64,000 nucleotides of DNA from Antedon mediterranea (taxonomy: Eukaryota; Echinodermata; Crinoidea; Comatulida; Antedonidae). A model generated the notes under the pieces. It saw only the letters and a list, made by a program, of their open reading frames with translations, made no database searches and had not been told where the DNA came from. The DNA is taken from positions 19,405,201-19,469,200 of the forward strand of contig NC_092670.1 in NCBI RefSeq assembly GCF_964355755.1, given 5' to 3'. This document shows positions 29,164 through 35,100 of this stretch, in pieces. The translations under genes and the position numbers were made by a program. Every line of letters begins with the position of its first letter. Position 1 is the stretch's first letter.

Positions 29164-32100
29164 TCATCGCTGCGGTTCTACCTCCATTTGGTTGTTGTTG
29201 GAATTACTTTGTGCGAATTGCGATTGTCCCGTTGATGGGGCATGGATGGGTGATGATCCAAACATTTTACATGCATCTGAGGTAGACATCTTTGAGAAAG
29301 CTGCCAGAGCATCGGGAAAATTGGGCGGAGTCGCTGGTGTGTTTGCTGGCGCACACATCTATAAAATAATAGTTAAATCATTAGGAATATAGTGATACAA
29401 GTGCCACAGTAAAGCAAAAAAAAACAGTATTATAGTTAGTATAAAGGTTGATAAATATATTATATGCAAACTCTGGTTTATATAGTAATTCCTAAACATC
29501 TTAAAATGATAACAGCCAACAAAATCTAAAAAATACTGTACAGTTCTTCCAAAATGAAAAATCTTTTTTCTTCAAATTTGCAATGTGTTCATTCATATTT
29601 AATAATTTTACTGTACATCCAAATAAGAAAATATAGGCTTTTAATTATAATCCAGTAAATAATAACCTGTCCAATATGAACTACTCTAATATGAATTGAG
29701 TTATTTAGTGCTCCATAATAATTATATGTACTGACTATTTAATATAGAATATTATTCTAGTAAAAGGATGCTGATGCGGAAGTACTGTATTATTATCAAT
29801 GCCATTGATAGTGGGAATTTACAATAACAATAACATTGAAAAAGGTCAACGTGATAACAAACACTAAAACAATGGACATCATATGAAACAATGCATTACC
29901 ATAGATGGAATGCATCAGTGTTGTTAAAAACAGGCAGTAACGTATTACTCATGATTTTGTTTGTCTAGTGTGAGCTGTAGCTAGGCCTTGAACTCCTGTT
30001 ATTGGTTGTGTGTGTTATGACGTGGTCTTAATTACAATATGCACTAGCTGCCTATTTAACAAGCCTAACAGTAGACTGAACACAGGCTCATTAGCATATC
30101 CAAAGCATTGTTTACAATGGCGTGATGTTGATAACTACTGTAGTGACCAAGTTCAGTTCAGTATTTTCTTGAATAATGTGTATGCTTAGTGAATTCCTAT
30201 GCTTTTATTTACTTTACATTCATTCAATTCAAGCTGTCATTTCAGAATCATGTCTAATTTTCTCCTTTTTAGCAAGCAATGTCATTATATTATAGACAAA
30301 CAAGTGCAAGGTCCAACTTTAGTTATTTAAGCAAATCTGACTGTATGTATGATACAAACACTATATTAAAACCATAGACGATTCAAACACTATATTATCA
30401 ATAAAACCATAGAAGACACCCTATATAAATTTTAATGTGGGAAAAAAAGCTTAAATACCACCATGACTGCCAACCTTACTAACACTATGACTTGTGAAAC
30501 ACTGTAAACCAAACAAAATAAAAATGTTGATGATGGCAAAAGGGAGAGCAACAGTCATGGAAGTCGTCAGGTGGCTCTCACACTAAAAAATAAACATAGA
30601 GAGATGTGCACGAACGTGCAGAACATGTTGGCATGTTACCTTTAATGTTTTACTTGACAAAAATGAAAAATACATGCACATAAGAACCTACTTTGACACA
30701 ACATCTACAGTTAAAAACTTTTCCGGTCTGATAAAAGATGGGAAAACATATTATAATATGACAACGCTAGGTTACTTCCTATAGGAAACATTCCATATTT
30801 TCCATTAAAGGGCCACTCATCATAGTGTCCCTTTAATGGTGATTTAAAAAAAGTTACTGACATTTTCACAGTTACTGACAAAGTTCATGTTTACATTACA
30901 TTTTAGTGAATATGAATTATCTAAACACACCAAATTATAAAACGGAAGAAATAATAATAACAGTAACGATTTGCAATCCTATTGACAGTTACTGTCTTTG
31001 TTCTATTAAGTATTCTGTCATCAATAAAAGCAAATTTTTTCTTCTCTGATGAAAGCTCTGGTTGAGACTGAGTTTCAGTCACAACAAAGAGTTCAAATAC
31101 CATGCTAAGCTCAATAGGATCAGCACTTAAAAAATACAATTCACTGGTTTTTCTGGATTTACAAATAAGTCTAGTAGTAATCAAAACACAAGTTAGGATT
31201 TAGTCAGTTTCGTGCAGTAAACATTACAAAAACATGTAAACAAAATCTAACTTACTGTTACTTAAATATATAAGTGTATTAAAATATTTCAGTCAAAATT
31301 TATTGTAATAATGTTAATGGGTAAATAAACATTACAATACCCAATACGTGTATTGTTATGAATTAAGTGGTACAGTATCATAGGAGTGTTGACAAAGTGC
31401 GAGGCAGCGAGGCAAGCGAGGCATGCGCGGCATGCCAAATATTTGTGCGAGGCATCATTTTATCATTTCCAAAAGTGCGAGGCATGCGAGGCATATAGTT
31501 TACAATTTCAAAAAGGTGCGAGGCATATCTTAACGTGCTATTATGCTATATTATAGGCCTAATAATCAATCGATACAAGCGTATCTAAATAGATTCGTGT
31601 ATACACTCATCATGTTGTTTATTTTTATGTAACGATTGTTTTTTCATTCAAGTCATATCGTGTCAAATTTTACTTTTACAAAAGTGCCCAAACTACGGTT
31701 AAAAAATCTGAACGACAGTCTTCAACTTTCGATAAACAATAATTGTTATAGCGACACACTCATCAAATGACTGCAATGTTTGTTGGCATTTCGAGCGTGT
31801 TCACTCACATGTCTCTCGAACATAGCAGAGTGAAAATAATATTTTGTCACACCCCTGCGCCTAGATCCGGTAGACCCAAGAGATGGAAAATCCCTCTTTA
31901 CTATTTAGCAGGTAGCGGAATGATTCAGCCCTCAGCTCAGAGGATTGTGGTGCATTTCCCTCCTATAGCACGTGGTTTCAGCAGCAACGCACAGACTTCT
32001 CTCTGAGCGGCGTGCCAAAGACATTTTTGACATTCCATTCTCTAGGAACAACACGTGTACCTCTCTCGCAAATAAGGTGAACAGCGATTGCCAGGACAAG

Positions 32101-35100
32101 TTCAATAACTGGCGGTGAATAAAAGGTAACTGATATGCCGATCCAATAACATGCCGCAAAGAAAAAAATTGCGACAGAATTCTGGAGCGCGTGTGAAAAA
32201 AGACTTACGTCCGACAATTGTAATACTAGGCCTAAAATTAAACTTTAGCTAATAATTTTTATTATGCTTAGCCCTAACCTAGATAAGAGGCCTATGTAGA
32301 AAATAATTTAATCAATTTTGATATAATAATAATTGGTGTAATATTTAATAATGATACACTATTCCTGTTTTAGTAAGCTAAGTATATTACGAACGATTTT
32401 TATTTATTGTTGTCCATGTACGTACTAATAAACGTGGCGCTAGTTTCCTTCGCTTGTATTTTTACTCCAAATTTGATAACTAACTTTATCGTGTGAATAC
32501 CACACCTTAGAAGTATACCTCATGAGTACTTTAATGAAAGAATCACATAAAAAGTAACAAATAAATCCTTAAATTAATGATTTTACAGGGGTGTTTCTCG
32601 CACACTGTTCGCGAATTTCACTTATTCAATGTTCAATATATTTGTTTCTATGGAGCGCCAAAAGAGCAACGATAATAGAGGACTAAAACTCAGTGGAATG
32701 CGTCAATTTCTCATGCATTTATTGGTGAAAAACACGTTTTATTTCAATATATTTGTTAATTTGTCAATAAAAATGTTGTAATATGTTACTGCTGATACTG
32801 TTCTGTTTTCTTCAAAGAATAATAATCGATCCTAAATCAACATCACTACCTAGTCTAGACCTAGGACATCCTACTAAGGATATTATGATGAATTTTTCTA
32901 TTTTATTCTTTAAAAGGTTAACGAAACCGTGTAGATTATCAACAGTAACATTTTTCCTTACTGACAGTGACAAAATCTATTGAAATTGTACTTGATTTTC
33001 ACCAAATAATGCGTTAAATATAAATGGATTCCACAGAGTTTTTAGCCCTCTAATTAATTTTGCTCTTTTGGCGTTTCATAGAAACCAAAATATTGAACAT
33101 TGAGTGTGCGAAATGCGAGAAAAACAACGTCTGTAAAATCACCAATTTAATGGATTTATTGTTACTTTTATGTGATTTTTCTTCATTAAAGTAGGCCTAC
33201 TAATTCTAAGCTGTGGTATTCAGGATAAAGTTGGTTAAAATACAAGGCAGGTGCAAAAGGAAACTAGCCTAGCGGGCCTAGGCCTAGGCTACTTCAATTT
33301 CGGTGATTACCTGCCTTGCAATTTTGAGAAATGATAAAATGATGCCTCGCATTTTTTGATGATGGTAAAACGATGCCTCGCATAAATTTCTGACTTGCCT
33401 CGCATGCCTTCCCTGCCTCGCATGCCTTCCCTGCCTCGCGTGCCTCGCTGCCTCGCACTTTGTTACTACCCGTATCATAGCAACATAGAACTTGGACTAT
33501 ACAGTAGTCTACTGTTAGTACATTATGAGTAATATACCTTGGTGAAGAACTTTCCTAACCTACACTACGGTACACTATTTACAAAAGAACTCTTAGTGTA
33601 TGCTTAGTGGGGAAATTACCCAAAAATAGATTTATTATCAAAACATTTATTGCATTCTGTGATCTTTTATGTTCCATTGTTGTCAGTAATTTTCAATTCG
33701 TTGTCTATCATAACATTACAACCAGCATTATTAATAGCACAATACATAATATTAATAGATAATAAGTTAGTTAGCAAAAATACAGTATTTGAATTAAGAT
33801 ACTTAGTAATATAGTATTATTATGGAAAATGATTTGAAATTGAAACATAAAACTGAATCATTAATATTATTATTGGCTCTAGTGTTTTTTCAATTCCTAT
33901 TTTTCTCAATGGATTTGAAGGAAATAATTGATGATGCATTTTTCTTGGGATTCAGCACTGTATAGAGATTAACTACTATTAATATTATACTACAATAGAG
34001 TAAGTCAGTCATATAGCAGAATAATTTTGCAATATAGCCTTATAAAAAAAATTGAACTGATAAACTGTGTAGTCTTCAATCAATAAAATTTATCATTTTA
34101 TGGCCAAAATCCAATATTTTTTTAAGGATTTCCAAGTAAACAAAACGTTGTTATTGGCAAACTGACAAGATTGCCACATATTTCTAAGGTCATAGGTTAT
34201 CTAATCCTGATTATAAATACTTTGTTTACCTTAATAGTATAGATAGATTAAGTTTTTATCATTGATAATGTTTAATTTATGTGATTAAATATTACTAAGT
34301 TGACCTTAAGAATCTACCTTTAGTTAGTATTAACTATTTAATATACTACTACTATACTTATTGGAAGTGCACCCTCTGTAATTTTTCCATTGACCTATTG
34401 TCTGTATGCTTCAATATATGGTAGTGTAAGTATATTAATACCTGGGATGGGAATAATTAATTAAGGCCAAAAAAATTGCAATAAACCAAAAATAGCCCTA
34501 CGTTTCTTTATAATTGAGAGAGTCTAAAAAAATCACAAGGCATCCAATTAACATGCAACTATTGTTACATAACACTAAAATTGGTGTGTGGGCGGACACT
34601 CTATCATAGAAATGGTCCACTGATTTTTCCATTTTTTACACACTAGTCCCTTAACAATGGATCAAGGTCATAGTACCATCATAGCTGGTGACCAATAGTT
34701 ACAGTGGGACAAGCAGGTCAAAGCACTAATGAAAAGGTACTTTTCCTTGTAGATTACTAACTCAGAAATGGGTTTCAAAGTGGGAAGAGTAAAAGAAGAA
34801 TTTCCATCACAGGAAAGTTTGTTTTGTTTTCACCTGTCCTAATCTATGTTGACAAATTGTTTTGACTTTTCTACCTATGGCCCCATCTCTTAAAATTTGA
34901 ATGCCGCCGGTTTAAATTAAAAGTCAACGAAATGGTCTATATAAGAATGGAGGCTAGCGTACAATACACCACATCCTTCCAACTTCTATAAAATAAATTG
35001 ATTGAATTATCCGTTACCGGTACGACTGACGAGATCTTCAAAAGTTATCCTAAAGCCATTTTTTTATTCAACTTTTCACCTAATATTGAATGAATCATAC

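What the first reader, a model, noticed from the sequence alone, without database searches (positions are those of the whole stretch)
31375..33480. Asymmetric foldback element with cargo in only one arm
A perfect 9-bp direct repeat encloses a 2.09-kb element that is almost entirely palindromic (outer GCGAGGCA-repeat ends plus inner arms), except that about 0.87 kb is present only between the left outer and inner arms. Either the element acquired sequence, or the right arm lost it. Ends built of short tandem subrepeats recall foldback elements. The 9-bp duplication suggests Mutator-like mobilisation (inference).
Basis: partly seen in the sequence, partly recalled or inferred. Interest (0 to 1): 0.6.

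Follow-up and report, generated by a model that had tools for sequence, protein, structure and literature searches.

The report
Recently amplified lopsided foldback transposon family
This is one of about two hundred nearly identical copies of a jumping-DNA element that makes no protein of its own; its lopsided, mostly mirror-image layout is a fixed trait of the whole family, and a second family of jumping elements in the same genome carries a related mirror-image core, lopsided on the same side, between different ends.

Summary
The element is window 31384-33471 (2,088 bp), flanked by the perfect 9-bp repeat GTATCATAG. It reads: left outer arm, 0.88 kb one-sided interior, inner left arm, inner right arm, right outer arm. 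The arms are only 71-79% alike. The left and right end sequences occur 209 and 203 times, exactly, in the 354-Mb genome. All 26 full-length copies read have the same asymmetry; 18 of 28 copies with both ends have exact 9-bp target duplications; copies differ from their consensus by 0.15-1.8%. So the asymmetry is inherited from a recent master copy, not an event at this locus. The palindrome is much older than the burst. A second abundant family has different end subrepeats but a related inner palindrome with an unrelated insert on the same side: the lopsided layout may predate both families. The best reading is a non-autonomous foldback transposon mobilised in trans, probably by a Mutator-type (MULE) transposase. 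The genome has MULE and IS1595/Merlin-type transposase genes, but none was found between these ends; longer copies that were read hold nested foldback elements. Superfamily membership is therefore likely, not shown. Closest known: Tm1 of root-knot nematodes.

The parts
31375..31383 (.). left copy of the 9-bp target-site duplication GTATCATAG
   Evidence: sequence; exact 9-bp duplications in 18 of 28 copies with both ends, none longer
31384..31556 (+). left outer arm: end GAGTGTTGACAAAG, then tandem GCGAGGCA-type subrepeats
   Evidence: 209 exact copies of the 23-base end in the genome
31557..32436 (.). one-sided interior ('cargo'), 880 bp, no long ORF, no Pfam or Rfam match; present between the left outer and left inner arm in 26 of 26 full-length copies
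32437..32845 (+). inner left arm of the internal palindrome (related to the inner left arm of a second family)
32846..33275 (-). inner right arm of the internal palindrome, about 71% complementary to the left arm
33276..33471 (-). right outer arm: TGCCTCGC-type subrepeats, ends TTACTACCC (end on the minus strand GGGTAGTAACAAAG)
   Evidence: 203 exact copies of the 23-base end in the genome
33472..33480 (.). right copy of the 9-bp target-site duplication GTATCATAG
   Evidence: sequence

Best explanation
The feature is a non-autonomous foldback-type DNA transposon. Shown: it is a discrete mobile unit with fixed, non-identical left and right ends, it makes exact 9-bp target duplications, and one lopsided master form has recently spread to about 200 places. 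Inferred: a transposase made elsewhere in the genome, most likely of the Mutator (MULE) type, binds the tandem subrepeats of the outer arms, excises the unit between the left end GAGTGTTGACAAAG and the right end TTACTACCC, and joins it across a 9-bp stagger. The inner palindrome and the one-sided interior are passengers. The palindrome formed long ago; its arms diverged to about 71% and were then copied unchanged. A related core, lopsided on the same side, lies between different subrepeat ends in a second abundant family, so the core or the ends may have been exchanged between families.
For: End counts 209 and 203, controls 0. 51 of 84 end pairs span 2.00-2.10 kb, always left with right; the few like-end pairs at 3-8 kb look like neighbouring copies. 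Exact 9-bp duplications in 18 of 28 copies, never 10. Uninterrupted target units with one copy of the 9-mer beside L004, which lies in a tandem array. 26 of 26 copies with order outL-cargo-inL-inR-outR and nothing between inR and outR. Divergence from consensus 0.15-1.8% against 71-79% identity between arms. Second family: at least 38 full or nearly full copies at 96-99%, 9-10 bp duplications seen by eye at L073 and L005, same-direction arm matches 72-76% against 67-69% inverted, and an 11-base segment in both left arms and missing from both right arms. MULE domains at 36 places, some in ORFs of 586-707 aa, SWIM-type in part.
Against: No transposase gene was found between these ends. Twelve transposase-domain hits on contigs C1-C3 lie 5.7 kb to 2.3 Mb from the nearest listed left end. 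The end motif followed by a different base is not enriched over the reversed control (24 against 33), so no autonomous partner with these exact ends was seen. A 9-bp duplication also fits other superfamilies (Merlin 8-9 bp, from memory; Rehavkus 9 bp, PMC6446971). Substitutions in the arms alone do not resolve left-with-left grouping (3:3:3).
Confidence: 0.75

Rival explanations
1. The element is mobilised by a transposase of another superfamily that also makes 8-9 bp duplications, such as Merlin (IS1595) or Rehavkus.
For: The genome has 11 matches to the IS1595/Merlin domain, one in an open frame of 325 aa. Ends of the second and third families begin GGGTGT; Merlin ends starting with GG are recalled from memory only.
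Against: Duplications are exactly 9, never 8, in the 18 clean cases. Foldback arms with 9-bp duplications have a MULE precedent (Tm1, PMC3169594). The one IS1595 match on C1-C3 is 2.3 Mb from the nearest listed left end.
Confidence: 0.15
2. The asymmetry arose because the inner palindrome is itself a mobile element that inserted next to the right outer arm; the 'cargo' is then simply the original interior.
For: The inner palindrome has a relative in another family with different ends. Nested foldback elements are common here.
Against: No target duplication was recognised by eye at the edges of the inner palindrome. In both families it sits in the same orientation with the insert on its left-arm side, which needs a coincidence if it inserted twice. 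No free-standing copy with its own ends was seen among the sequences read.
Confidence: 0.25
3. A private gain of cargo, or a loss from the right arm, happened in this one copy.
Against: All 26 full-length copies share it. The one cargo-less copy read (920 bp, beside L067) is a deletion derivative with breakpoints inside the left outer arm and inside the inner left arm.
Confidence: 0.01

Closest known systems
Tm1 Mutator/Foldback family of root-knot nematodes (PMC3169594)
   Same: Arms made of short tandem subrepeats; 9-bp target duplications; non-identical motifs at the two ends (Tm1 motif A2 is CCTACCC, here the right end is ACTACCC); mostly non-autonomous copies; a nested inverted-repeat insertion reported.
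   Different: Tm1 subrepeat is about 14 bp CGATTCAGTATCGC, here GCGAGGCA-type. Tm1 is low-copy and called senescent; this family is young and has about 200 copies. Tm1 has a member encoding a FLYWCH-MULE transposase; none was found here.
Drosophila FB/NOF, Galileo, Tetris and Arabidopsis FARE foldback elements
   Same: Long, internally repetitive inverted arms around a middle of variable content. Tetris: flanking, repeat and inner domains, 8-10 bp duplications, no coding capacity (PMC4079207).
   Different: Tetris and its relative DAIBAM share their ends; here the two families share the inner core and differ at the ends. Galileo uses a P-type transposase (PMC3573991, abstract).
Plant MULEs with tandem terminal inverted repeats (PMC3310237)
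   Same: Outer and inner inverted repeats in one element; no target duplication at the inner pair. One copy here (L075) has its left end duplicated in tandem.
   Different: In plants the inner repeats resemble the outer ones; here the inner arms are a different sequence, found also in another family.

Membership tests
Foldback-type transposon (a structural class) | long inverted arms containing tandem subrepeats | tested here: met
Foldback-type transposon (a structural class) | mobile: many copies in different flanks with target duplications | tested here: met
Mutator superfamily (MULE) | 8-11 bp target-site duplication | tested here: met
   exactly 9 bp in 18 of 28 copies with both ends; range from PMC6446971
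Mutator superfamily (MULE) | ends shared with an element that encodes a MULE transposase | tested here: inconclusive
   MULE genes are present, but none was found between these ends; end lists were cut at 100 places and the 20 MULE loci read span only about 3.2 kb each
Tm1 | motif C subrepeats CGATTCAGTATCGC and motif A1 CGGTTAA or CGGATAA | tested here: not met
   sequence
Merlin (IS1595) | ends shared with an element that encodes an IS1595 transposase | tested here: inconclusive
   domain present in the genome; the one hit on C1-C3 is 2.3 Mb from the nearest listed left end

The most novel reading that the evidence does not exclude
Foldback transposons in this genome are modular: an old, diverged palindromic core with its one-sided insert behaves as a chassis that has been combined with different terminal subrepeat arrays, so that one core may be moved by different transposases. 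The same process may build the many nested foldback elements seen here.
Probability: 0.25. Interest if true: 0.55.

Novelty: new member of a known kind. Interest (0 to 1): 0.35.

Why it matters
It shows that the lopsided layout is a stable, heritable architecture, and it offers an unusual comparison: two young families that share a core and differ in their ends. That makes it possible to ask whether foldback elements exchange ends, and what the inner palindrome contributes. For genome annotation it accounts for about 0.4 Mb of recent insertions in one family.

Tried and rejected
Looked for an autonomous relative. The 9.2-kb copy on C2 (5.25 kb of its interior read, L078) holds a foldback element with arms of about 440, 80 and 62 bp at 95-99% and no ORF over 90 aa. 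The 3.27-kb copy on C1 (L077) holds a nested 1.16-kb foldback of 21-bp repeats; two further copies of about 3.28 kb were not read. The 10.4-kb pair on C1 carries a third-family end and encloses another complete copy. A pattern for ends with a different following base gave no excess over control. Cargo as a captured gene: no Pfam match for its two longest reading stretches, no Rfam match; its donor could not be sought because family copies fill the 40 scored hits. Homology between the cargo and the second family's insert: none convincing (best E for any cargo match 0.02, and that to another part).

Full report
Observation. The window holds a 2,088-bp unit at 31384-33471 between two perfect copies of GTATCATAG. 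It consists of a left outer arm (31384-31556), a one-sided interior (31557-32436), an inner left arm (32437-32845), an inner right arm (32846-33275) and a right outer arm (33276-33471). Both outer arms are built of GCGAGGCA-type subrepeats. The inner arms match at 70.7% and the outer arms at about 79%. The palindrome is real but old.

It is a family. The genome (G000, 354 Mb, 18 contigs) holds at least 34 nearly complete copies among the 40 candidates scored. The exact 23-base left end occurs 209 times and the right end 203 times, with no match for the reversed controls. Of 95 listed left ends, 84 pair with a right end within 20 kb, and 51 of these at 2.00-2.10 kb; the few like-end pairs at 3-8 kb look like neighbouring copies. 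Exact 9-bp duplications flank 18 of 28 copies with both ends, and none is longer. Copy L004 lies in a tandem array whose neighbouring units show the uninterrupted target with one copy of the 9-mer.

The asymmetry is inherited. In 26 of 26 full-length copies the order is outL, cargo, inL, inR, outR, with 865-891 bp between outL and inL and 0-7 bp between inR and outR. Copies lie 0.15-1.8% from their consensus. The spread is recent, while the arms had already diverged by 21-29%. A 920-bp copy without the cargo is a deletion derivative.

A second family. Loci L073 and L005 contain another element, about 1.08 kb, with ends GGGTGTCACGAAA, other subrepeats and 9-10 bp duplications. At least 38 full or nearly full copies at 96-99% exist. 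Its inner palindrome is related to that of the first family: same-direction matches of 76% and 72% (E 3e-43, 1e-41) beat the inverted ones at 69% and 67% (E 5e-33, 1e-22). An 11-base segment is present in both left arms and absent from both right arms; substitutions alone do not decide. In both families the insert lies on the left-arm side, but the inserts are unrelated. I infer a common palindromic core, perhaps already lopsided, joined to different ends.

Transposase. MULE domains occur at 36 places, some in long open frames with SWIM-like fingers. IS1595/Merlin domains occur at 11. On C1-C3 none lies closer than 5.7 kb to a listed left end. No partner with the same termini but a different next base was found. 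Of the longer copies, L077 and the part of the 9.2-kb copy that was read (L078) hold nested foldback elements, and L063, at the left end of the 10.4-kb pair, runs into a third-family end; none shows a transposase gene. Assignment to Mutator therefore rests on the 9-bp duplication, the arm structure and the Tm1 precedent.

Comparison. The nearest described system is Tm1 (PMC3169594). Tetris (PMC4079207) and plant tandem-TIR MULEs (PMC3310237) are structural parallels. Membership in Tm1 is excluded by its subrepeat and A1 motifs; membership in Mutator is likely but untested at the deciding point.

Limits. Only the best 40 candidates are scored per DNA search, pattern lists stop at 100 places, and about 300 kb of the genome could be read. 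The organism was not identified.

Noticed in passing
L077:824-1983: A 1.16-kb foldback made of 21-bp repeats TCATGCAGTACACACCAATCG is inserted in the cargo of a family copy, with a possible 6-bp duplication TGTGAA. Two other copies on the same contig have a similar total length (3.28-3.29 kb) but were not read.
   Followed up: partly
L063 (C1:330250 leftwards) and L078:1180-5251: A third family with subrepeats ACGACCTCGAATTG and end GGGTGTGTAGAAAG is nested in family copies. In L078 it has arms of about 440, 80 and 62 bp at 95-99% and no ORF over 90 aa.
   Followed up: partly
G000:C4:22168278-22170449: Two complete copies of the second family lie head to tail with one base between them.
   Followed up: no
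L075:1501-1960: One copy has its left end duplicated in tandem (213-bp unit), resembling plant MULEs with tandem terminal repeats.
   Followed up: no
G000:C2:1382286, C2:15352026, C3:9339044, C5:1627366, C11:21020252: Five MULE ORFs of 651 aa with identical scores, a candidate recently active autonomous family; not read.
   Followed up: no
window 58182-58254: tRNA gene (Rfam RF00005).
   Followed up: no
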